From: Bacteroidales bacterium
GTDB taxonomy: Bacteria > Bacteroidota > Bacteroidia > Bacteroidales > UBA932
Direction of reading: 5' to 3'
NCBI GenBank assembly: GCA_024401945.1
Contig: JAKSKC010000050.1
Location: 1-9,443 of the forward strand
DNA length: 9,443 nucleotides
The translations under genes were made by a program, and so were the position numbers. Below the pieces are notes generated by a model. The model saw only the letters and a list, made by a program, of their open reading frames with translations, was not told where the DNA came from and did no database searches. Numbering within the stretch: position 1 is the stretch's first letter; every line of letters begins with the position of its first letter. Shown here piece by piece: positions 1 through 9,443 of the stretch.

Positions 1-1135
1 CAAAATCCGCAAGGTCGATCCAGTATTCCTTCCCGTCAGCGAGCAGCGCATTCCCAATATGGAGGTCGCCGTGGATGCAGGTATCCGCCCCCGGGACGGA
101 ATCAATGAACTGCCTTATCTTCTTTCTGCCTGCGTCATCAAGGTACCTGGAGGTCGAGATCCTGTCAAGGAAACGTTTCTCCACCGGCCGGAAGACCTTC
201 CTGTCGCAAGGGGTGGAGTGCAGTTTCAGACACATCCTGGCGAACTCCCTCGAATATTCCTCAAGCCTGACCGGCCCCTGTGAGATAGCGCGGGCGAAAG
301 ACCGTATGCCCGCGACCCTTTCGAATTCCACGCCCGTGCGCTTCCCGTCGGTGACCAGACGGTATGCCTCCGGGACAGGGATTCCCATCCCGGAAACGGA
401 CCTGGACACTTCGAGTTCCCTTTCGGGAATGTCCGGAGTGACGAAGTCCTCGTAGAGCTTCATCATCCTGTTCTTTGTCCTGTGGAAGTAGCTTACAGCG
501 GTGAAACCGTCCCCGCTGACTTCATAGTCGTCCATATCAACAAGCTCCGGCGCAGCCTTGCCGAACACGGAGTTTATCTTTTCAAGGAATTCCTCGTATG
601 GAGGAAGGCCCTTCAGTTCGCTCAGGGATGCTGCAAGGCCACGGTAATGCCACTCGTGGTCGGCTCTCCCGCCCGGAGCGTGGAAAAGCTCCCAGAGTTT
701 GTCCCCCCGGACTTCATAGTCCCTTGCGATCGCCCTCATATTTGAGAGCTTGTCGCCGATGGCGACGGTCTTTGCATCCATCGATGCATCCTTCAGGCGG
801 GATATTGCCTTCTGCTTCCTCTCCCTCCAGGTTTGGCTTTCCGGGCCGCCCGTGTCAATATTGTCCGATTCAGCCTCGACTATCCCGGCGATCCTGTCGC
901 CGAACTCCTTCCTTATGACGTCGATGGTCACGTCGGTATCCTCCACCGTATCGTGAAGCGCAGCCGCAGCGAGCAGCTCCGGATCGTTAGTCACGGTTGA
1001 GACTATCTCCATAGCCTCCAGTACATGAATTACGTACGGGAAGCCTTTTCCCCGCCTCTCGGTGTTGGCGTGCGCGTCCACCGCAAACTTTATCGCCTTG
1101 TCAACAAGTGACGTATCAAGATACCTGTTTGCCAT
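1..1135 (-). CDS. HD hydrolase (MESH1/SpoT-like) fused to APH-like kinase, 3' part missing
   Basis: Frame is open from ATG at 1135 to the left edge (378 codons, no stop), so the C-terminus is outside the window. Residues about 1-185 form an RSH-type HD hydrolase domain: H37, the H61-D62 pair, E65-D66 within HDTVEDT, and D128/N132 in GDKLSNMR. Order and spacing match the Mn-binding and catalytic residues of MESH1 and SpoT, which remove the 3' pyrophosphate of (p)ppGpp. Residues about 205-378 are an aminoglycoside-phosphotransferase-like kinase: probable ATP lysine in MKLY (K226), a following acidic helix, the catalytic loop HGDLHIGN (355-362, D357, N362), and the metal-binding WIDLAD (D374). 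This half recalls the TIGR02172 phosphotransferase group, from memory. It starts four bases after the RelA/SpoT synthetase gene, so it is probably co-transcribed and translationally coupled. Inference: it degrades the product of that synthetase, and the kinase modifies an unknown substrate. Both active sites look intact. Domain calls are firm; biological role is not known. Confidence 0.88.
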   Translation of the reverse strand, partial: MANRYLDTSLVDKAIKFAVDAHANTERRGKGFPYVIHVLEAMEIVSTVTNDPELLAAAALHDTVEDTDVTIDVIRKEFGDRIAGIVEAESDNIDTGGPESQTWRERKQKAISRLKDASMDAKTVAIGDKLSNMRAIARDYEVRGDKLWELFHAPGGRADHEWHYRGLAASLSELKGLPPYEEFLEKINSVFGKAAPELVDMDDYEVSGDGFTAVSYFHRTKNRMMKLYEDFVTPDIPERELEVSRSVSGMGIPVPEAYRLVTDGKRTGVEFERVAGIRSFARAISQGPVRLEEYSREFARMCLKLHSTPCDRKVFRPVEKRFLDRISTSRYLDDAGRKKIRQFIDSVPGADTCIHGDLHIGNALLADGKEYWIDLADF

Positions 1136-1139
1136 AATT

Positions 1140-2240
1140 TCAGATATCCTTTTCCGAAGTGATGAAACTTGCCTGCTCGAACACCGACTTCGCCCTCTCC
1201 GCGTTGTACGGGGACTCCCCTGTCAGCATGTCGAACATTTCCCTGAGTCCGTCCACACCGCCTCCTGTCTTCAGGATGTGCACGATGCAGAGGTCCTGTA
1301 TCGCTATAGTGGATGAGATGATATCGATGTCAGTGTTGCCGATCTGGTAAACAGCCAGATGATAGGCATCGTTGCTGTTGTCCTCTATGAACTTCTCGAC
1401 GCCGGCCAGTGTCTCTATGCCGAACGACTTGAGCAGCTTGACATAGGGCAGGGCGGATGATTCGTGCACTTCCGCCTGGTTTATCGCCGCGATCCTGTCC
1501 ACCAGCTTTGCGAACGGATTCAGCTGCAGGTAGCTCTTGAAGGTCTCGCCGTCCAGGGGAACATCCTCGAACTGACCGCTGGCCACCAGTTTCCGGACCT
1601 GACGCCAGTAATTGTTTATGTTATTCCTTATCAGGCTGAACTGCTCGTCCACCAGCTCCAGCATTCCGGCAAGCCTGTTCAGGCTGCGGATATACTCCCT
1701 CGGCACCTCCACTCCGGACTTGTAGCCGGTATCGTGGTCCAGGGTGGCCCAGACGTGCTGGAGGGCTGTCCTCATCTGAACCTCGAAACGGAACTCGTTT
1801 ATCTGCGGATACTTCGGATTGCTGTACAGGCTGACCGGTATCCTGCAGATGTAATGCAGTGAATTGTAACCGAAGGAATTCAGTTCGTGCTTCCTGCGCT
1901 TGTCCACGCTGTTTTTCCAGTCCACCTCGAAAAGCTTGTCGATTATGGCTGAAATCTTGTCGACCTCCTCTACGTAGAAAGTAATTATGCGGGCGCCTAC
2001 GATATCTGTTACATCCTTGATATCAGCATACTTGTAGCCTTTCAGCTCAAGTTTGCCGGCAAGGCTTTTCTCAGTCTTTATCCTCGTTTCGACCGCAGTT
2101 ACATAAACTCCGCTGGTCTTTATCGCCCTGTTGATTTCCGTATTGACGATATTCTCGATGATCTCGAAGACCGGCGTCTCGTTTCTGTACTCCTCAAGAA
2201 TGGAGCTGCAATGCTGGTCGAGACCGTAGTTGTTAACCAT
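1140..2240 (-). CDS. Stand-alone RelA/SpoT-domain pyrophosphokinase (small alarmone synthetase or toxSAS-like)
   Basis: The 366-residue cytosolic protein carries one RelA/SpoT synthetase domain at about residues 25-215 and no HD, TGS or ACT domain. Visible signatures are R53/K55/S59/K63 with the ATP-binding RxKxxxSxxxK spacing, D79 in DIVGARI (Mg ligand), the G-loop FGYNSLHY with Y125, and FEVQMRT with E154, followed by HVWATLDHD as in small synthetases such as RelQ. The family transfers pyrophosphate from ATP to the 3' OH of GDP/GTP, to adenine nucleotides, or, in toxSAS members, to the CCA end of tRNA. Which acceptor is used cannot be read from the sequence. Residues about 220-366 form a probably helical extension that I do not recognise and that makes the protein longer than typical RelQ/RelP enzymes. 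The gene is first in an operon with the HD-kinase fusion, whose ATG is four bases downstream. The ATG at 2240 follows a TAnnTTTG promoter box closely; AGGAT lies too near to be a good ribosome-binding site. Confidence 0.9.
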   Translation of the reverse strand: MVNNYGLDQHCSSILEEYRNETPVFEIIENIVNTEINRAIKTSGVYVTAVETRIKTEKSLAGKLELKGYKYADIKDVTDIVGARIITFYVEEVDKISAIIDKLFEVDWKNSVDKRRKHELNSFGYNSLHYICRIPVSLYSNPKYPQINEFRFEVQMRTALQHVWATLDHDTGYKSGVEVPREYIRSLNRLAGMLELVDEQFSLIRNNINNYWRQVRKLVASGQFEDVPLDGETFKSYLQLNPFAKLVDRIAAINQAEVHESSALPYVKLLKSFGIETLAGVEKFIEDNSNDAYHLAVYQIGNTDIDIISSTIAIQDLCIVHILKTGGGVDGLREMFDMLTGESPYNAERAKSVFEQASFITSEKDI

Positions 2241-2253
2241 ATCCTAGAATAAC

Positions 2254-2277
2254 ACGTAATACGCAAAAATACGTAAT
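2254..2277. promoter_or_regulatory. Possible operator: repeated ACGTAAT / TACG words
   Basis: ACGTAAT occurs twice in direct orientation (2254-2260 and 2271-2277, 17 bases apart). Between and around them lie the inverted pair CGTA-A-TACG (2255-2263) and the palindrome TACGTA (2270-2275). The cluster covers the -7 box and probable start site of the minus-strand promoter and the expected -33 region of the plus-strand promoter. Such a position would suit a repressor acting on both, but these are short words in AT-rich DNA and may be chance. Confidence 0.25.
2264..2271 (-). promoter_or_regulatory. Putative -7 promoter box for the synthetase/HD-kinase operon
   Basis: On the minus strand these bases read TATTTTTG, an exact match to the Bacteroidota -7 consensus TAnnTTTG. 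The box ends 23 bases before the ATG at 2240, which would leave a very short leader. No convincing TTTG -33 element sits about 19 bases upstream, so the promoter may be weak or need an activator. Confidence 0.5.
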
Positions 2278-2283
2278 TTTTCT

Positions 2284-2291
2284 TACTTTTG
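2284..2291 (+). promoter_or_regulatory. Putative -7 promoter box for the rhamnosidase-trmO operon
   Basis: The bases read TACTTTTG, an exact TAnnTTTG match, and end 28 bases before the ATG at 2320. As with the opposing promoter, no clear -33 TTTG is present at the expected distance (about 2261-2265). The two -7 boxes are only 12 bases apart, so the divergent promoters overlap physically. Confidence 0.55.
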
Positions 2292-2319: not shown

Positions 2320-4038
2320 ATGGGCAATTATTTTCACAGAACATTGATTGTCGCCTCACTGGCGGCAATATGCATCAGTGCCGGGGCACGGGAAATCAGC
2401 AGGGAGTTCATAACCCCGAAGGCCGTGATGCTGGAGGAAGGCTGCGAACACAGCGGTGAACTGCTGGTCGCCAAAAGCAGGCAGGCGTCCCTGGGAAGTG
2501 CCGGAATGTGCGCGATGAGCACGAAGAACGGTGCGAAGGCCAGCATACTGCTGGATTTCGGGCAGGAGCTCCAGGGCGGGCTTGAACTTGTGCTGGGCTC
2601 TTCGAAGCCGTACAGGCCGGCAAGGATGCACATCTGCCTCGGGGAATCGGTGGCGGAGGCTCTCAGCAGCGTGGACGAAGCTGGAGGAACGGCCACCAAC
2701 GACCATGCAATGAGGGATTTCGAGATAACGGTGCCGAGAGACGGCAGCATACGGGTCGGAAACAGCGGATTCAGATTCGCAAGGATAGACCTGGTGGAGC
2801 CGGGCCAGACAGTATTCGTGCAGAACGTCAGCGCCATAAGCGAGATGAGGGATCTTCCGCGCAGGGGAAGTTTCCGTTGCAGCGACCCTCTGCTGAACAA
2901 GATATGGGAAACCGGAGTGAGGACGGTGCAGCTCTGCATGCAGGACTATCTCTGGGACGGCATCAAGAGGGACAGGCTGATATGGGTCGGGGACATGTAC
3001 CCGGAAGTGGCTACCATCTATTCGGTATTCGGGGATGACCCTATCATCAGGGAGAGCCTGGATGTGGTGGAGAAGCAGTTCCCTCTCCCTAACTGGATAA
3101 ATGGAATGCCTGCTTATTCACTGTGGTACATCATATTACAGGATCAGATCTACAGGCATACTGGAGATTACGAATACCTCAGCGGAAAGCTTCCTTACAT
3201 AAAGGGAGTCATAGCGAAACTTGATGAATCCTTCAACGCTGACGGAGAACTCTGCCTGCCGTCAGAGTTTCTGGACTGGCCTTCATCCGACAATAGGAAG
3301 GCTGTCCACAGCGGCACGGTGGCGCTGGCCCTGAAGGCGGCGCAGACAGCGGGCGAACTCGCATCAGCCTGCGGGGACGGAAGCATCGGGGGCCAGGTGG
3401 CCGGGATAGTCTCCAGGCTGGAGGACCTGCTGGCCGGTGACGGGGGCCAGACCTTCGGAAACAAGCAGGCTGCGGCCATGCTGGGGCTTTTCGCGGACAA
3501 GACCGACAGGGAGATCTGCGGAGTGATCGAGAAGGACGGAGTTAAAGGCTTCAGCACCTTCTACGGATATTATATGCTCGAGGCGATGGCCCAGTACGGC
3601 AACCAGCACACGCTCAAGGCAATCGAATTCATAAGGAAATTCTGGGGCGGGATGCTGGAACTCGGGGCGACAAGCTTCTGGGAGGATTTCAACATCGAAT
3701 GGATGAACAATGCGGGACGCATAGACGAACTTCCGGTTCCCGGAAAGGTCGACGTCCACGGAGCATACGGCAACTACTGCTACAAGGGTTACCGTCACAG
3801 CCTCTGTCACGGCTGGGCATCCGGTCCTACGGCCTGGATGAGCAGCCACATCCTGGGTGTCGAGATCATCAATCCCCATATGGTTGTGCTCGATCCGAAC
3901 CTCGGGGACCTCGAATGGGCCGAGGGAAGTGTTCCTCTGCCCGAAGGGGCCGTCGAAGTCAAGCTCACAAGGAAGAATGACGGTTCATTCAGCATCCTCT
4001 ACGATGCTCCGGAAGACGTAACAGTTATGTTAAAATAG
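2320..4038 (+). CDS. Secreted GH78-type alpha-L-rhamnosidase, first of a tandem pair
   Basis: This 572-residue glycosidase should hydrolyse terminal alpha-L-rhamnose from glycans in the periplasm or outside the cell. Residues 1-23 look like a Sec signal peptide ending near SAGA, with no good lipobox. A beta-sandwich region (about 30-180) precedes an (alpha/alpha)6 barrel (about 185-515) and a short C-terminal beta domain (about 522-572). The family signature is DGIKRDRLIWVGD at 213-225, aligning with the GH78 DxxxREx(6)D motif: D213 and D225 are kept but the usual general-acid Glu is Asp (D218). The likely general base is E455 in TSFWEDFN, and H497 lies in SLCHGWASG. I recall the DGIKRDR form in other Bacteroidota GH78 relatives, so it is probably a subgroup trait rather than a loss of function. 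The next rhamnosidase starts six bases after the stop, so they share a transcript. Exact substrate is unknown, and no SusC/SusD genes are in view. Confidence 0.87.
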   Translation: MGNYFHRTLIVASLAAICISAGAREISREFITPKAVMLEEGCEHSGELLVAKSRQASLGSAGMCAMSTKNGAKASILLDFGQELQGGLELVLGSSKPYRPARMHICLGESVAEALSSVDEAGGTATNDHAMRDFEITVPRDGSIRVGNSGFRFARIDLVEPGQTVFVQNVSAISEMRDLPRRGSFRCSDPLLNKIWETGVRTVQLCMQDYLWDGIKRDRLIWVGDMYPEVATIYSVFGDDPIIRESLDVVEKQFPLPNWINGMPAYSLWYIILQDQIYRHTGDYEYLSGKLPYIKGVIAKLDESFNADGELCLPSEFLDWPSSDNRKAVHSGTVALALKAAQTAGELASACGDGSIGGQVAGIVSRLEDLLAGDGGQTFGNKQAAAMLGLFADKTDREICGVIEKDGVKGFSTFYGYYMLEAMAQYGNQHTLKAIEFIRKFWGGMLELGATSFWEDFNIEWMNNAGRIDELPVPGKVDVHGAYGNYCYKGYRHSLCHGWASGPTAWMSSHILGVEIINPHMVVLDPNLGDLEWAEGSVPLPEGAVEVKLTRKNDGSFSILYDAPEDVTVMLK

Positions 4039-4044
4039 TACAAT

Positions 4045-6201
4045 ATGAGAAAGTTAATGATTTCAGCATTGGCAGTGCTCGCATTTGCCGCCACAGCCTT
4101 CGGACAGGCCAGGTGGATAACCGTTGACGAGCCTGCCGGGGTCAACAGCTGGATATGTTTCAGCAAATCGGTCCATCTGGACAACGTCCCTTCAAGCGTT
4201 CAGGCAAGGATCGCCGTGGACAGCAAGTACTGGCTCAGGATCAACGGCGAGGAAGTCATCTTCGAGGGCGGACTCAAGAGAGGACCGAACCCGTCGGACA
4301 CATATTGCGACCTCGTTGAACTCGCCCCGTTCCTGCACAGCGGCGACAACAACATAGAACTGCTCCTGTGGTATTTCGGCAAGAGCGGATTCTCGCACAA
4401 CAGCAGCGGCAAGGCGGGCCTCTTCTTCGATGCGCCGGCCATAGGACTGAAATCGGACAGCAGCTGGCTCAGCGGCATCAACCGCGCATACGGCACCACA
4501 TCCAACCCCGCTCCGAACTACCGTCTTCCGGAATCCAACATCCGCTATGACGCACGCTTCGAGACAGTATTCCTCAGACCTTCAGTGGAAGTCTGCGAAG
4601 AGGGCGGACAGCCTTGGGGCAAGCTCGTGGAGCGTCCTATCCCGCAGTTCAGGAACTTCGGGGTCAAGGATGTCGAATACACTGTCGACGGGGACAGGAT
4701 CGTGGCCAGGCTCCCTTATAACATGCAGTTCACACCGGTCATCGAGCTCAATTCCAAATACGCCGGGGAACTCATAGACATCAAGACCAACCACAGTTTC
4801 GCCGGAGCCACCTGGAACGTGCGCGCCGAGTACGTGACAAAGGCCGGTGAACAGAGCTACGAGAGCCTCGGATGGATGAACGGCGAGGAACTGTGGCTCA
4901 CCGTGCCGAAAGGCGTGGAGATCAAGCGAGTGGCCTACCGTGAATCCGGCTACGACACGGAATACGCAGGAAGCTTCAACTTCGACGACGAGTTCTTCAA
5001 CAGATTCTGGCAGAAGGGAGTCAACACCCTCTACATCAATATGAGGGACAATTTCTTCGACTGTCCGGACAGGGAAAGGGCCCAGTGGTGGGGAGACGTC
5101 GTGGTTCTCAGCGGCGAATGCTTCTACACACTTTCCCCGAGCGTGGACAAGCTCATCGCGAAGGCCATCCGCGAACTCTGTGACTGGAAGACCGGGGAGG
5201 GAGTGCTCCACAGCCCGGTGCCTACGGGAATCGGGATAAGCGAACTTCCGGGACAGATGCTCGCTGCGATCAGCCTGTACGGCTTCTGGAACTACTATAT
5301 GAACACCGGGGACCGGGAGGTCCTTGAATACGCCTACCCTTCCGTCAAAGGTTATCTGAAGCTTTGGAAGCAGGACAGCAACGGTCTCACCGAATACCGC
5401 AAGGGCGGCTGGAACTGGGGCGACTGGGGTGATGAGAAGGATATGAGGCTCATATATGCGGGCTGGCATTCTCTGGCGCTGCAAAGCGCAGAGAAGATGG
5501 CCCGGGAACTGGGCCATCCGGCCGAGGCGAAGGAATTCGCCGCGGCGGCAGCCCGCCTCAAGAAGGGATTCAACCTCAGGTGGAAGGACGGCGCATACAG
5601 GTCGGACGACTACAAAGGCAGGACTGACGACAGGGTCCAGGCCCTGGCAGTGCTGGCCGGCATAGCCGGAAAGGACAAGTATCCGCAGATATTCAACACC
5701 CTCAGGAAGGAGGAGCACGCAAGCCCGTATTTCGAGAAATACGTGATGGAGGCGCTTTTCCGTATGGGATACGGTGAGTACGCCCTGGAGCGGGACAAGA
5801 AGAGATTCTCCGATATGGTCAACAACACGCAGTACAGCACCCTCTTCGAGGGATGGGACATCGGTAACGCCAAATTCGGAGGCGGAACCACCAACCACGC
5901 CTGGTCCGGCGGCACGATCACCGTCATCGGGGCCGAGCTGTGCGGCATCCGTCCTACGGCTCCGGGCTGGACCGAGTTCACAATGGCCCCGGCGGCATCC
6001 ACAAGCGCGCATTCATACAGCATAAGCATACCGACCGTCAAGGGTGACGTCAAATCAAGCTGGCAGGTGGACGGCAGGAAAGCGGTATGGACGATCACGG
6101 TTCCGGAGGGAACCAGGGCGAAAGTAACCGCACCGGGACAGAGCGGCTTCAGGACATACTCCCCTGGCACATACACAATCAACTGCAAGGTAGCTGAATG
6201 A
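4045..6201 (+). CDS. Secreted GH78 alpha-L-rhamnosidase, second of the pair
   Basis: The 718-residue protein has a clear Sec signal peptide (residues 1 to about 20, ending AFG before Q21) and no lipobox, so it is probably periplasmic. Residues about 22-130 resemble the carbohydrate-binding-like N-terminal domain of bacterial rhamnosidases (YWLRINGEE, then an LLLWYFG strand). A further beta domain extends to about 305, the (alpha/alpha)6 catalytic barrel covers about 310-635, and a C-terminal beta-sandwich ends with KVTAPGQSGF and similar strands. The motif DCPDRERAQWWGD (339-351) gives the canonical D339, general acid E344 and D351; the likely general base is E602 in TLFEGWD, with H618 in TNHAWSGG. 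Unlike its upstream neighbour it has the standard GH78 active site. Differing length and motif suggest the pair act on different rhamnosides or in sequence on one glycan rather than being a recent duplication. No Shine-Dalgarno sequence is seen; translation may rely on coupling. Its stop overlaps the start of trmO. Confidence 0.9.
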   Translation: MRKLMISALAVLAFAATAFGQARWITVDEPAGVNSWICFSKSVHLDNVPSSVQARIAVDSKYWLRINGEEVIFEGGLKRGPNPSDTYCDLVELAPFLHSGDNNIELLLWYFGKSGFSHNSSGKAGLFFDAPAIGLKSDSSWLSGINRAYGTTSNPAPNYRLPESNIRYDARFETVFLRPSVEVCEEGGQPWGKLVERPIPQFRNFGVKDVEYTVDGDRIVARLPYNMQFTPVIELNSKYAGELIDIKTNHSFAGATWNVRAEYVTKAGEQSYESLGWMNGEELWLTVPKGVEIKRVAYRESGYDTEYAGSFNFDDEFFNRFWQKGVNTLYINMRDNFFDCPDRERAQWWGDVVVLSGECFYTLSPSVDKLIAKAIRELCDWKTGEGVLHSPVPTGIGISELPGQMLAAISLYGFWNYYMNTGDREVLEYAYPSVKGYLKLWKQDSNGLTEYRKGGWNWGDWGDEKDMRLIYAGWHSLALQSAEKMARELGHPAEAKEFAAAAARLKKGFNLRWKDGAYRSDDYKGRTDDRVQALAVLAGIAGKDKYPQIFNTLRKEEHASPYFEKYVMEALFRMGYGEYALERDKKRFSDMVNNTQYSTLFEGWDIGNAKFGGGTTNHAWSGGTITVIGAELCGIRPTAPGWTEFTMAPAASTSAHSYSISIPTVKGDVKSSWQVDGRKAVWTITVPEGTRAKVTAPGQSGFRTYSPGTYTINCKVAE

Positions 6202-6854
6202 ACATCGAACCGATAGCATTCTTCCATTCTCCGCTGACGGAGAAGTTCGGGCTTCCGAGACAGGCGGGCCTGGCCCCTTCCCTGAAGGGGGAGGTCCGTC
6301 TGGTCAGGGAATTCGCAAGGGAGGAGGCTCTGCGCGGGCTGGACGGCTTCACCCACCTCTGGCTGATCTGGGGATTCGACCGGAACCGGAGCGAGGTTGC
6401 GCTTACGGTACGTCCTCCCAGGCTCGGGGGTAACACCAGGATGGGGGTTTTCGCGACACGCTCCCCTTTCAGGCCCAACGGGATGGGACTCTCGGCAGTA
6501 AGGATATGCTCGGTCAACGCGGCGGAAGGGAAGATAACCGTCGAAGGGGCCGACCTTGCCGACGGCACGCCGGTATACGACATAAAACCCTATGTCCCCT
6601 ACGCCGACAGCATCCCGGATGCAAACGGAGGATTCACCGACAGCATCGGATGGAAGAAACTGGAAGTCTGCATTCCGGATGGGATCCGGAATGAAATGGG
6701 AGAAGATGCCGGAGCGCTCATAGAAGTGCTCGAACTGGACCCGAGACCGCAGTATCAGGAGGACCCGGATAAAGTTTACGGCCTGACTTTCGCAGGCCGT
6801 AATATAAGGTTCAGGGTTTCTGAAGGCAAACTGACAGTCCTCAGCTGCGGATAG
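6198..6854 (+). CDS. trmO: tRNA (adenine(37)-N6)-methyltransferase TrmO (TsaA/YaeB family)
   Basis: TrmO uses S-adenosylmethionine to N6-methylate t6A37 in the anticodon loop of tRNA-Thr (giving m6t6A), tuning decoding. The 218-residue protein is near the length of the E. coli enzyme. Family hallmarks run throughout: FGLPRQAGL (17-25), LRGLDGFTHLWLIWGF (45-60), RPPRLGGNTRMGVFATRSPF (72-91) followed by RPNGMGLS, DLADGTPVYDIKPYVPYAD (119-137), and the C-terminal DPRPQYQ...YGL segment (181-196). The ATG at 6198 overlaps the rhamnosidase stop in an ATGA arrangement, implying translational coupling to a functionally unrelated glycosidase operon. No closer alternative start gives the conserved IxPIAFFHSP beginning. 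Its last 14 bases overlap the 3' end of lpdA on the opposite strand, and a 10-bp perfect hairpin lies within its final codons. Confidence 0.95.
   Translation: MNIEPIAFFHSPLTEKFGLPRQAGLAPSLKGEVRLVREFAREEALRGLDGFTHLWLIWGFDRNRSEVALTVRPPRLGGNTRMGVFATRSPFRPNGMGLSAVRICSVNAAEGKITVEGADLADGTPVYDIKPYVPYADSIPDANGGFTDSIGWKKLEVCIPDGIRNEMGEDAGALIEVLELDPRPQYQEDPDKVYGLTFAGRNIRFRVSEGKLTVLSCG
6776..6802 (-). terminator. Hairpin, probable terminator of the gcvPB-lpdA transcript, inside trmO
   Basis: A perfect 10-bp inverted repeat (TTACGGCCTG / CAGGCCGTAA) encloses a 7-base loop. Read on the minus strand, the loop is CGAAAGT, containing a C-GAAA-G tetraloop, which makes that strand's RNA hairpin the more stable one. 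It starts 38 bases after the lpdA stop and is followed by only a weak T-rich stretch (ACTTTATC), so termination may be partial. The same bases encode trmO residues about 193-202. Confidence 0.5.
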
Positions 6855-8112
6855 CGGCCTGAAGGACTTCGGAAAGGGTCGGATGCGCGTGAATCAGCCA
6901 TCCGGCCTTTTTTATGTTCACCCCGAGGGCCACCAGGGTCGCTGCCTCGTGGATGATGTCGGACGCATGCGCGCCCAGGATGTGACATCCGATGATCCTG
7001 CCCCCGCAGTCCGTAAGAAGCTTGCAGCAGCCCTCGGAACAGTCGGAGGCCACAGCCTTCCCGTTTGCACGGTAAAAGGCCTTGTGAGCCTTGAAATCGA
7101 TGCCTGCGGCCTTGCAGTCCTCCTCCGTCATGCCGACGGTGGCAAGTTCCGGCTCCGTGAACACTGCGGCAGGGACTACGGAGAAATCTATCTCATCCTC
7201 CACCCCTGTAATGTCATTGAGGGCCCTGAGTCCCTGGAACGAAGCCACGTGCGCGAGCATCATCCCCCCGGTAACGTCTCCGACAGCGTAGATATCAGGT
7301 ACGGAAGTCCGCATACGACCGTCGACGACTATGCCGCGCGGACCGTATTCCACACCGGCAGCCTCGAGGTTCAGCCCCTCGGTATTGGCCCTGCGTCCGA
7401 CTGCCATCAGGACGCAGTCCGCATCCGCCTGCAGGCTCTCCCCCGCCAGTTGGTACTGCACGCCCAGGACTCCGTCCCCAGACTTTGAGATGCCCGTAAC
7501 CTGAGCTGAAGTAACGATATTGATTCCGGACCTTACAAGGCTTTGTTTCAATCTTTTCGCGATATCGATATCAAAGCGTGGAAGTATGTTTGCGCAATAC
7601 TCGAGGACAGTCACTTCGGAGCCTCTCGCCTTGAATATCCCGGCGAATTCCAAGCCGATGACACCGCCCCCGATAATCACCAGACGGGACGGGGTTTCAG
7701 TCATTTTCAGAAGATCCCCGGACTCTGACGCGAGCTCCGCACCAGGTACAGGGAGCCGGGCTCCCCTGGAACCCGTAGCGATGATTATCCTGTCGGCCTC
7801 CATTACCTCATCCCCCACCTTCACGCTGTGGGCGTCGACAAAGGAAGCCTTCCCGTTCACCACCCTTACCTTCCTGAGCAGGGACGCTATGCCCGTGCGG
7901 AGCTGCTGTACGACCTCATCCTTCCTGGCCACGGCATCCGAAGCGGACAGGGCCTTGGAGTGGATAAGGGCCTTGGTAGGGATACAGCCCTCGTTAAGAC
8001 AGGTTCCGCCAAGCGGTCCGTCAGTCACGAGAGTGACATCCAGTCCCCGGGAAGCGGCTTCTGCCGCAGTCTCGTAGCCTCCGGGGCCGGCACCTATGAC
8101 AATCAGTCTCAT
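6841..8112 (-). CDS. lpdA: Dihydrolipoyl dehydrogenase, L-protein of the glycine cleavage system
   Basis: This flavoprotein reoxidises the dihydrolipoyl arm of GcvH with NAD+. The N-terminal FAD site is IGAGPGGYE (6-14), the redox disulfide is C38/C43 in GGTCLNEGCIPTKAL (35-49), the second nucleotide-binding glycine motif is IIGGGVIGLEFAG (146-158), FAD contact ATGSRG is at 112-117 and IYAVGDVTG at 274-282. The C-terminal catalytic dyad is H410/E415 in HAHPTLSE. At 423 residues it is shorter than the usual roughly 460-475: the stretch after CIPTKAL is compressed (about 50-80) and the tail stops eight residues after the catalytic Glu, yet every catalytic element is present. The start ATG at 8112 shares its A with the gcvPB stop (TGATG), so the two are translationally coupled, assigning this copy to glycine cleavage. 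Its 3' end overlaps trmO by 14 bases. Another flavin disulfide reductase is possible but unlikely given the context. Confidence 0.94.
   Translation of the reverse strand: MRLIVIGAGPGGYETAAEAASRGLDVTLVTDGPLGGTCLNEGCIPTKALIHSKALSASDAVARKDEVVQQLRTGIASLLRKVRVVNGKASFVDAHSVKVGDEVMEADRIIIATGSRGARLPVPGAELASESGDLLKMTETPSRLVIIGGGVIGLEFAGIFKARGSEVTVLEYCANILPRFDIDIAKRLKQSLVRSGINIVTSAQVTGISKSGDGVLGVQYQLAGESLQADADCVLMAVGRRANTEGLNLEAAGVEYGPRGIVVDGRMRTSVPDIYAVGDVTGGMMLAHVASFQGLRALNDITGVEDEIDFSVVPAAVFTEPELATVGMTEEDCKAAGIDFKAHKAFYRANGKAVASDCSEGCCKLLTDCGGRIIGCHILGAHASDIIHEAATLVALGVNIKKAGWLIHAHPTLSEVLQAAIRS
6877..6913 (+). terminator. Intrinsic terminator of the rhamnosidase-trmO operon, inside lpdA
   Basis: GGTCGGATG (6877-6885) pairs with CATCCGGCC (6899-6907) over nine base pairs including one G-U, around a 13-base loop, and is followed directly by six T (6908-6913) then AT. 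Upstream A residues (6873-6875) can extend the stem into the T tract. It lies 23 bases downstream of the trmO stop and has textbook intrinsic-terminator form for the plus strand, although the same DNA encodes the lpdA C-terminus around residues 400-412. Confidence 0.72.
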
Positions 8113-9443
8113 CAGTCTTCATATTTGAGGACAGGCTGCCTTGCGGCAAGCGTCTCGTCCGGTCTTCCGATAGGGGTGTTGTGAGGGGCGAGATGAAGCA
8201 TCTCAGGGTCGCTCTCGGCCTCCTGCGCTATCTTGCGCATAACGTCTATGAAGGCATCGATGGTCTCCACCGACTCCGTCTCCGTAGGCTCGATCATAAT
8301 GGCCTGGTGGAAGAGCAGAGGGAAATATATGGTAGGAGCGTGGAAGCCGTAGTCAAGAAGTCTCTTGGCAACATCCAGGGTGCTGGCCGCACCGCTGGCA
8401 AGACCGTCGAACACGAACTCGTGCTTGCAGACCTGAGGAAGCGGAAGCTTGTAGCAATCCTTGAGTGATTCCTTCACGTAATTGGCTGCAAGGGTGGCGA
8501 GACGGCCCGCCATAAGCAGGTTCTCCTTGCCGAGCATCAGGATGTAAGCATAGGCTTTAAGCATCACGCCGAAATTTCCGTGATAACCTGAAACCTTCAC
8601 ATTATCAAGATATTTAACAAGTTTGTCACATACTCCGACAGGGCCACTTCCAGGACCGCCGCCGCCGTGAGGCGTGCTGAAAGTCTTGTGCAGGTTGAGA
8701 TGCATCACGTCAAAGCCCATATCACCAGGACGGACAACACCCATAAGCGGATTCATATTCGCCCCGTCATAATAGAGCAGTCCTCCGCATCCGTGGACAA
8801 GTTCGGCGATCTGCGCTATATTGCTCTCGAAGAGTCCGAGGGTGTTCGGATTGGTCATCATTATTCCCGCGATGTCCGGTCCGAGCAGAGGCTTCAGCGC
8901 CTCCACGTCAATGAGGCCGTCAGGACCTGATTTCACCTCCACTATCTCGAGTCCGCAAACTGCAGCCGAAGCCGGGTTGGTGCCGTGCGCGCTGTCAGGA
9001 ACGATGATCCTGGTACGGGCGAGGTCTCCCCTCCCGAGGTGATACTCCCTTATGAGCATAAGCCCGGTCAGCTCCCCGTGGGCGCCGGCACAAGGAAGGA
9101 AGGTGAAATGATTCATTCCGGTAATCTCCGCCAGACACGCATCAAGAGACTCGATCACTGCTTCAGCCCCCTTTACGGTCTCCTTTGGCTGGAGCGGATG
9201 AAGTCCAGCGAACATCCCGCCGAGTTCCTCGTTGACCTTGGGGTTGTATTTCATCGTGCAGCTTCCGAGCGGATAGAAGCCCGTGTCCACGCCGAAGTTC
9301 ATCTGACTCAGATTGGTGTAGTGACGGACAACGTCGGGTTCGCTGAGTTCGGGAAGGGCCGGGGCCTTGTCCCTGAGCAGCTTTGCCGGAATATCCGAAG
9401 TGAAGGTTGAAGGAACGGAATCGGCACCGCTGCGAGAGTATGC
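8112..9443 (-). CDS. gcvPB: Glycine dehydrogenase (decarboxylating) subunit 2, 5' end missing
   Basis: This is the PLP-binding C-terminal half of the P-protein, which decarboxylates glycine and passes the aminomethyl group to lipoyl-GcvH. The frame stays open to the right edge, 47 codons beyond the internal Met at 9302, so that Met is not the start; the extra residues begin AYSRSG, comparable with the PGRRAYS region near the GcvPB N-terminus, so only a short piece is missing. Recognisable segments are [19 protein letters not shown] (from 9296 down), [22 protein letters not shown], and the PLP lysine in [17 protein letters not shown] (residue 253 of the visible part). The visible 443 residues match the size of a split GcvPB rather than a full-length fused GcvP of about 950. 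A gcvPA gene would be expected just outside, to the right. The stop overlaps the lpdA start by one base, forming a glycine cleavage operon. Confidence 0.95.

What the first reader, a model, noticed from the sequence alone, without database searches (positions are those of the whole stretch)
1..2240. Alarmone-type synthetase coupled to an HD hydrolase-kinase fusion: candidate toxin-antitoxin or signalling module
Seen: a stand-alone RelA/SpoT synthetase with its key residues intact (R53, K55, D79, Y125, E154) is followed four bases later by a MESH1-like HD domain with H37, H61-D62, E65-D66, D128 and N132 intact. Known: toxSAS toxins such as FaRel can be paired with small alarmone hydrolase antitoxins, and some toxSAS pyrophosphorylate tRNA CCA ends, a mark that hydrolases can remove. 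Inference: this operon encodes an enzyme and its eraser, either growth-arrest toxin plus antitoxin (possibly anti-phage) or a local signalling switch. The fused kinase is not part of the toxSAS pairs I know, so the module may be a new variant.
Basis: partly seen in the sequence, partly recalled or inferred. Interest (0 to 1): 0.78.

Follow-up and report, generated by a model that had tools for sequence, protein, structure and literature searches.

The report
Alarmone synthetase-hydrolase pair beside partner switch
The window holds a gene for an enzyme that probably makes a bacterial alarm nucleotide next to a gene for its probable eraser, and in related gut bacteria this pair often sits with a sensor-driven protein switch, so it looks more like a dedicated alarm-signalling circuit than a toxin and antidote.

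Summary
Confirmed: window 1140-2240(-) encodes a stand-alone RelA/SpoT-type synthetase (366 aa) with an intact active site, followed 4 nt later by an HD_4 hydrolase fused to an APH-type kinase (2-1135, cut by the window edge). The toxin-antitoxin reading is not supported: by profile and predicted fold the synthetase is nearest RelP/RelQ, ahead of CapRel, Tas1 and FaRel2, and no phage or plasmid record matches it over 80% of its length. In an even draw from one Bacteroidales family, 33 fetched loci had 5 kb or more on both sides: HD lies near the synthetase in 32, and so does a partner-switching module: SpoIIE phosphatase (31), RsbW-like kinase (31), STAS protein (30). There, 42 of 42 genomes with the synthetase have SpoIIE, against 40 of 157 without. 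In seven of 13 genomes the only STAS gene lies within 6 kb of it; none of the 13 has a SigB/F/G-type sigma factor over the cut-off. Best reading: an alarmone analogue of SiaABCD, in which a partner switch controls the synthetase and HD resets the signal. Binding is inferred, most Fibrobacter loci lack an adjacent switch, and the window ends before any switch gene.

The parts
1140..2240 (-). small alarmone synthetase, 366 aa (SYN)
   Evidence: PF04607 E 2.2e-17; 66-sequence alignment; AlphaFold2 pLDDT 88.8
1608..2204 (-). catalytic domain of SYN (about residues 13-211), RelP/RelQ-like
1143..1580 (-). C-terminal helical domain of SYN (about residues 221-366), no Pfam family; candidate regulatory or partner-binding domain (inferred)
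   Evidence: confidently predicted helices; no Pfam hit; fold barely tested in the structure search
2..1135 (-). HD-hydrolase/APH-kinase fusion, cut by the window edge
   Evidence: HD_4 2.8e-18, APH 7.3e-9; TIGR02172 2.5e-49 (168.1 bits, under its cut-off of 228.2); full-length relative P0121, 470 aa, 98% identity
551..1135 (-). HD domain (about residues 1-195), RelH/MESH1-like small alarmone hydrolase with intact HD motifs
2..541 (-). N-terminal part of APH-type kinase domain (residues 199-378; the relative P0121 has 470), HGDLHIGN and IDLADF present
   Evidence: fold of the full-length relative matches AmiN and APH(3') kinases
1136..1139 (-). 4-nt spacer between the two genes (operon-like)

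Best explanation
The two genes are the enzyme core of a sensor-controlled alarmone circuit. SYN transfers pyrophosphate from ATP to a nucleotide (most likely GDP/GTP) to make an alarmone; the HD domain removes it again. In many relatives the same operon encodes a partner-switching module: a SpoIIE-type PP2C phosphatase with dCache-type sensor and HAMP domains, an RsbW-like serine kinase (HATPase_c_2, often fused to the phosphatase) and an RsbV-like STAS protein with a conserved SSxGLR motif. I propose that the signal activates the phosphatase, the STAS protein is dephosphorylated, and STAS (or the kinase it sequesters) then changes SYN activity, perhaps through SYN's extra C-terminal domain; the kinase re-phosphorylates STAS to switch off, and HD clears the product. 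SYN takes the place that a sigma factor or a diguanylate cyclase has in known partner switches. Shown by sequence: gene content, motifs, linkage and co-occurrence, and no SigB/F/G factor over the cut-off in 13 genomes. Inferred: product, binding, direction of control, kinase substrate, and that the window's own operon continues the same way.
For: Linkage: in an even draw of 199 genomes from the family of G001, 39 of the 43 matching loci were fetched; of 33 with at least 5 kb on both sides, HD 32, kinase 28, SpoIIE 31, HATPase 31, STAS 30, same strand, within 7 kb. Co-occurrence: SpoIIE in 42 of 42 genomes with SYN against 40 of 157 without (Fisher 1.7e-20, not corrected for kinship; G330, whose match looks like another SAS, counted as without; with it 42 of 43, 5.6e-19), and SpoIIE within 10 kb of SYN in 35 of 42. 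Fibrobacter order: 54 of 55 against 33 of 58. Uniqueness: of 20 genomes searched, G001, G002, G476 and G488 have one SpoIIE each, within about 5 kb of SYN (SYN positions); of 13 searched, G001, G003, G004, G005, G007, G476 and G488 have one STAS gene each, within 6 kb of SYN. SigB/F/G: a match over the cut-off in 0 of 13 genomes (weaker matches in all 13, presumably other sigma factors). Motifs: SSxGLR in 46 of 46 STAS; N-box-like EExxN and GGLG in 29 of 29 HATPases; GDVSGKG in 23 of 25 SpoIIE, but NDD[IV]T in only 15 of 25 (sets chosen by length from the clusters). STAS abuts SYN (within 60 nt) in 29 of 140 loci. 13 of the first 80 loci, 12 of them titled Prevotella or Prevotellaceae, have STAS at SYN although HD and kinase were not found in the fetched flanks. 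Two loci of G011's phylum (one MAG titled Akkermansia) have STAS, SYN, HD-kinase and HATPase, and a degenerate STAS-like stretch lies between HD and kinase (Pfam STAS_2 E 0.0015 for L206, below cut-off). Enzymes: RelP/RelQ-like SYN, RelH-like HD. Precedent: SiaABCD, HsbA-HsbD, BgrV-BgrR, where a STAS or STAS-like partner controls a diguanylate cyclase (PMC8457831, passages).
Against: The window ends inside the HD-kinase, so no switch gene of its own locus was seen; among the 120 listed SpoIIE relatives none has the 38,977-base contig length given for the window's SYN. 12 of 15 fetched Fibrobacter-order loci (of 55 with SYN) have HD but no switch gene within 7 kb, and 8 of 49 well-flanked loci of the first 80 likewise; 6 of those 49 have neither on the same strand (L002, L010, L029, L052, L057, L071; L002 has the switch genes on the other strand). 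In the family sample, G440, G494 and G499 have no SpoIIE in 7-10 kb downstream of SYN. The two loci of G011's phylum show no SpoIIE within the fetched 19 kb. SpoIIE is also in 40 of 157 and 33 of 58 genomes without SYN, so it has other uses. No interaction was modelled or measured. The C-terminal domain is also present where no switch is adjacent, so it need not be a STAS receptor. The SYN tree is weakly supported around the window, and independent pairs showed no significant joint change of switch and HD (median p 0.5). Genomes are mostly draft MAGs by title.
Confidence: 0.6

Rival explanations
1. toxSAS toxin-antitoxin pair: SYN makes (p)ppApp or pyrophosphorylates tRNA CCA ends and stops growth; the HD enzyme is an antitoxin that erases the product, perhaps as phage defence.
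For: SYN next to a small alarmone hydrolase, as in C. marina faRel with aTfaRel (PMC11782079, passages); patchy in Bacteroidales (8 of 295 genomes of the order, one of them a weak partial match); PADLOC candidate model PDC-S33 matches SYN, 4.4e-17.
Confidence: 0.1
2. Synthetase and hydrolase form an auxiliary (p)ppGpp metabolism pair, and the partner switch next to them controls a different output (a distant sigma factor, transporter or envelope enzyme); the genes only share a promoter or a stimulus.
For: 12 of 15 fetched Fibrobacter-order loci have HD-SYN without an adjacent switch; transporters, Na/H exchangers or a lipid-kinase domain occur in some loci; SpoIIE also occurs in genomes without SYN.
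Against: In seven of 13 genomes the only STAS gene is within 6 kb of SYN, and no SigB/F/G factor passes the cut-off in the 13; STAS is found at SYN even where HD and kinase are not; in the loci scanned the transporters differ from locus to locus.
Confidence: 0.2
3. SYN and HD act on a substrate other than the usual alarmones: a signalling pyrophosphorylation of another nucleotide or RNA, reversed by HD, with the APH kinase acting on the same molecule.
For: The APH-type kinase is fused or near in many loci (28 of 33 in the family sample) and has no known part in alarmone metabolism that I can recall; 14 of 15 genomes searched also have a RelA_SpoT match in an open frame of over 600 aa, so ordinary (p)ppGpp synthesis is already provided for (G011 shows SYN only).
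Against: RelP/RelQ-like catalytic domain with Y125 invariant, and RelH-like HD.
Confidence: 0.1

Closest known systems
SiaABCD of Pseudomonas aeruginosa (also HsbA-HsbD, BgrV-BgrR)
   Same: Phosphatase, kinase and STAS or STAS-like partner control a second-messenger synthase; [quoted passage not shown]
   Different: The synthase there is a diguanylate cyclase (c-di-GMP); here a RelA/SpoT-type synthetase with its own hydrolase and an APH-type kinase; the partner here is a classical STAS protein, whereas SiaC is DUF1987. Control is shown there, inferred here
RelP / RelQ small alarmone synthetases
   Same: Nearest solved relatives by profile and fold
   Different: SYN has an extra C-terminal helical domain of about 145 residues, sits beside a hydrolase gene, and scores 60.7 bits against a RelQ-model cut-off of 320
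RelH-type / MESH1 small alarmone hydrolases
   Same: HD domain 27-31% identical to RelH (C. glutamicum) and the Leptospira hydrolase in the fold alignments, HD motifs intact
   Different: Fused to, or near, an APH-type kinase
DsRel, the SAS-TPR of Treponema denticola (Tde-SAS) with Tde-SAH
   Same: SAS with a C-terminal regulatory domain; the TPR domain brakes synthesis; a separate SAH in the same genome (PMC10434055, abstract and passages)
   Different: C-terminal domain there is TPR (no TPR hit here); no partner switch named in the passages read; gene numbers TDE1711 and TDE1690 are not adjacent
FaRel/aTfaRel and other toxSAS modules
   Same: Synthetase beside a hydrolase
   Different: Catalytic domain scores far lower against FaRel2 and CapRel than against RelP/RelQ; relatives of SYN carry a sensor-switch module

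Membership tests
Small alarmone synthetase (RelA/SpoT superfamily) | RelA_SpoT domain with intact catalytic residues, no HD domain in the same chain | tested here: met
   PF04607 63.8 bits against cut-off 27, no other family; residues. Activity not tested
Small alarmone hydrolase | HD_4 domain with HD, ED and DxxxN motifs | tested here: met
   PF13328 66.6 bits against cut-off 27.2; residues; RelH-like fold. Activity not tested
RelQ equivalog (NF053588) | score over the curated cut-off of 320 bits | tested here: not met
   60.7 bits
toxSAS toxin-antitoxin | synthetase groups with toxSAS rather than housekeeping SAS | tested here: inconclusive
   profile and fold rank RelP/RelQ far above CapRel and FaRel2, but no RSH-wide tree was built
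toxSAS toxin-antitoxin | toxic alone, neutralised by the partner | not testable with these tools
   needs an expression assay
toxSAS toxin-antitoxin | association with phages, plasmids or other mobile elements | tested here: not met
   SYN: 0 records with 80% cover in 50,697 phage and 72,556 plasmid records; HD-kinase: 0 in plasmids, phage records not searched; no relative in viral contigs. Partial hits exist in 29 phage and 58 plasmid records. Chromosomal islands were not examined
Partner-switching system (in relatives) | PP2C phosphatase, HATPase_c_2 switch kinase and STAS protein with conserved serines, encoded together | tested here: met
   SpoIIE 31, HATPase 31, STAS 30 of 33 loci of the family sample; SSxGLR 46 of 46; Pfam on representatives. 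Phosphorylation not tested
Partner-switching system (window itself) | switch genes in the window's own operon | not testable with these tools
   window ends inside the HD-kinase; no whole genome held
Partner-switch-controlled second-messenger synthase | STAS or kinase binds the synthase and sets its activity | not testable with these tools
   only linkage, and 0 of 13 genomes with a SigB/F/G match over cut-off

The most novel reading that the evidence does not exclude
A RelA/SpoT-type alarmone synthetase is the direct output of a SpoIIE-RsbW-RsbV partner switch: gut Bacteroidota, some Fibrobacterota and (from one record title) Verrucomicrobiota make alarmone on command from an extracytoplasmic dCache-type sensor, independently of ribosome stalling, with a dedicated hydrolase to reset it and an APH-type kinase as a further arm.
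Probability: 0.5. Interest if true: 0.8.

Novelty: new variant of a known kind. Interest (0 to 1): 0.67.

Why it matters
From general knowledge, most known inputs to alarmone synthesis are intracellular (stalled ribosomes, nutrient-sensing partners of long RSH enzymes, transcription of SAS genes). A partner switch with an extracytoplasmic sensor wired to an alarmone synthetase would be a new input route, would extend to alarmones a logic reported for sigma factors and diguanylate cyclases, and would give a function to lone SpoIIE/STAS genes in bacteria without SigB-like factors. It can be tested with one operon of a few genes. No report of a partner switch controlling an alarmone synthetase was seen in the held papers: listings (2 papers; 3; 0; 5), and the STAS review PMC8256260, where a term search for ppGpp and alarmone gave nothing. 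Subscription papers and preprints were not searched.

Tried and rejected
Toxin-antitoxin reading: weighed as rival 1. Viral origin: two scans, no relative. TIGR02172 in the literature: 0 papers. The founding toxSAS paper (10.1073/pnas.1916617117) is not held, so toxSAS names rest on the papers seen and on recall. An RSH-wide tree against toxSAS clades was not built; profile and fold ranking were used instead. Joint change of switch and HD on the SYN tree gave no significant result. A first gene caller that took the longest ORFs missed SYN or chose antisense ORFs in several loci; profile searches of stop-to-stop ORFs were used instead. Lengths of stop-to-stop ORFs are upper limits because they can start before the real start codon.

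Rows left out: one search also gives full-set counts; the quoted ones use loci with at least 5 kb on both sides (33 of 39; 49 of 80), same strand, within 7 kb. Of 43 matching genomes, 39 loci were fetched (not G330, which looks like a different SAS; not the partial matches G493 and G498; G001 was already held as L001). Fibrobacter-order loci: 15 of 55 fetched, chosen by me from the upper part of the list. Motif sets: 46 STAS of 50 cluster members and, from a shared cluster of 60, 29 HATPases and 25 SpoIIE, picked by length. Tree: 128 of 140 loci plus the window (identical or short rows dropped), 89 labelled, switch genes on either strand counted.
Full report
Observation. Window 1140-2240(-) encodes a 366-aa protein with one Pfam domain, RelA_SpoT (E 2.2e-17); 2-1135(-) encodes HD_4 (2.8e-18) fused to APH (7.3e-9) and runs off the window. 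The gap is 4 nt. E51, R53, K55, D79, Y125, E153 and Q155 are invariant in an alignment of 66 sequences, the HD residues in one of 30. The kinase shows HGDLHIGN and IDLADF before the window ends. No whole genome is held for the window.

Distribution. By genome search: 8 of 295 genomes of the order of G001 (one, G063, a weak match to the catalytic part only), 43 of 199 of its family (one, G330, likewise, and two partial), 55 of 113 of the order of G008, a Fibrobacter-titled genome (at least four of them partial or broken), and 5 of 240 of G011's phylum, of which two are full-length. One match per genome, except G595 with two adjoining pieces. Both viral-contig scans found no relative. Phage and plasmid records hold only partial matches to SYN (29 and 58 records, none with 80% cover); the HD-kinase has no plasmid match with 80% cover. 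Of 15 genomes searched with RelA_SpoT, 14 also have a match in an open frame of over 600 aa, that is a long RSH.

The neighbours. Clustering of ORFs around SYN in the 80 loci showed three recurrent families besides HD and kinase: a STAS protein of about 105 aa (cluster in 48 loci), and SpoIIE phosphatases of about 630-800 aa with dCache/MCP-like_PDC and HAMP domains together with HATPase_c_2 proteins, often fused to them (joint cluster in 44 loci); a tyrosine phosphatase family (PF13350) is in 19. L001, the locus with the highest identity to the window (66%), reads SYN, HD-kinase, HATPase, SpoIIE, STAS, tyrosine phosphatase, all on one strand. The least biased sample is the even draw from one family: of 33 loci with at least 5 kb on both sides, HD 32, kinase 28, SpoIIE 31, HATPase 31, STAS 30. 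In the first 80 loci, 49 with such flanks: HD 27, kinase 18, SpoIIE 24, HATPase 33, STAS 33. Thirteen Prevotella-type loci have STAS-SYN-LuxR, with HATPase upstream, and no HD or kinase found nearby. In the Fibrobacter loci HD usually precedes SYN, and 12 of 15 fetched loci have no adjacent switch gene; in three further genomes not fetched (G531, G545, G600) a SpoIIE lies within 4 kb of SYN by position.

Is the link more than chance? SpoIIE occurs in 42 of 42 genomes with SYN and in 40 of 157 without in the family sample (Fisher 1.7e-20), within 10 kb of SYN in 35 of 42. Of the other seven, G408 lies on a 3.4-kb contig and G386 has 1.6 kb downstream, while G440, G494 and G499 have 7-10 kb downstream without SpoIIE; G493 and G498 were not fetched. 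In Fibrobacter's order 54 of 55 against 33 of 58. Neither figure is corrected for kinship. Uniqueness is a further argument: of 20 genomes searched, in G001, G002, G476 and G488 the only SpoIIE of the draft genome is within about 5 kb of SYN (on the other strand in G002), and of 13 searched, in G001, G003, G004, G005, G007, G476 and G488 the only STAS gene is within 6 kb. A SigB/F/G-type sigma factor passes the cut-off in 0 of 13 genomes; the weaker hits are presumably other sigma factors. The switch proteins look active: SSxGLR in 46 of 46 STAS (SSSGLR 25, SSQGLR 20), EExxN-type N-box and GGLG in 29 of 29 HATPases, GDVSGKG in 23 of 25 SpoIIE, though a strict NDD[IV]T pattern fits only 15 of 25. 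On a tree of 129 SYN sequences the switch is found in many separate groups, with 12 changes of state for the switch, 7 for HD and 16 for the kinase on 89 labelled rows; support is weak in places, the window's position is not resolved, and a test of joint change of switch and HD was not significant.

Fusions. In two loci of G011's phylum (L040/L207 and L206) HD and kinase are separated by a STAS-like stretch: Pfam STAS_2 E 0.0015 in L206, below the curated cut-off, and a weak match to the local STAS profile in both; it lacks the serine motif. These loci have STAS and HATPase genes but no SpoIIE in the fetched stretch. In L142 a lipid-kinase-like protein (DAGK/YegS) is fused to the HATPase. These are hints, not proof.

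Mechanism. Known partner switches release a sigma factor, or, in SiaABCD, HsbA-HsbD and BgrV-BgrR, control a diguanylate cyclase through a STAS or STAS-like partner; unphosphorylated SiaC binds and activates SiaD (PMC8457831, passages read; PMC5085249, passages). The loci described here have the same parts with an alarmone synthetase in the place of the cyclase, and a hydrolase of their own. I take the synthetase as the most likely output (about 0.6), co-regulation of another output as the main rival (0.2), and toxSAS as unlikely (0.1). The role of the APH-type kinase is open; its frequent fusion with HD suggests that it works on the same molecule or reports the state of the circuit (inference).

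Against it. The window itself shows only the two enzyme genes. Most fetched Fibrobacter loci keep the pair without an adjacent switch, and SYN keeps its C-terminal domain there. SpoIIE is common in genomes without SYN too. No binding was tested.

Novelty. The enzymes are new members of known families; the arrangement with a partner switch was not seen in the held papers (listings; term search in a STAS review). In 2011 Fibrobacteres were listed with two unplaced divRel synthetases and a Mesh1-L hydrolase (PMC3153485, passages), which may include this pair; that was not tested.

Noticed in passing
window 2320-4038 and 4045-6201 (+): Two adjacent alpha-L-rhamnosidase-like six-hairpin glycosidases (PF17389), divergent from the synthetase gene.
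   Followed up: no
window 6198-6854 (+), 6841-8112 (-), 8112-9443 (-): TrmO tRNA methyltransferase, a pyridine-nucleotide-disulphide oxidoreductase (dihydrolipoyl-dehydrogenase-like) and a glycine dehydrogenase protein (GcvP2_C).
   Followed up: no
window 2264-2271 (-) and 2284-2291 (+): Back-to-back TAnnTTTG motifs between the divergent genes, like the Bacteroidota -7 promoter element (consensus recalled).
   Followed up: no
L142:11913-13214: Diacylglycerol-kinase/YegS-like protein fused to the HATPase_c_2 switch kinase; HATPase ORFs of similar length in L144, L149, L152, L154, not scanned with Pfam.
   Followed up: partly
L206:10015-11808 and L040:8848-10785: HD-kinase fusions with a degenerate STAS-like stretch between the two domains.
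   Followed up: partly
L003, L005, L009, L023, L026: A family with an NMT1-like substrate-binding domain (PF09084 in L005) within the operon near the switch genes, perhaps a periplasmic co-sensor.
   Followed up: no
L056, L060, L063-L065, L069, L070, L074-L076, L078-L080: LuxR-type regulator (GerE in L056) directly downstream of STAS-SYN in Prevotella-type loci, where HD and kinase were not found.
   Followed up: no
G013, G014, G015 (loci L056, L065, L070, titled Prevotella): 14, 12 and 9 SpoIIE-domain matches per genome, against 1 to 5 in the other 17 genomes searched.
   Followed up: no
G011: No RelA_SpoT match other than SYN in the draft genome, so SYN might be its only alarmone synthetase, if the draft is complete.
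   Followed up: no
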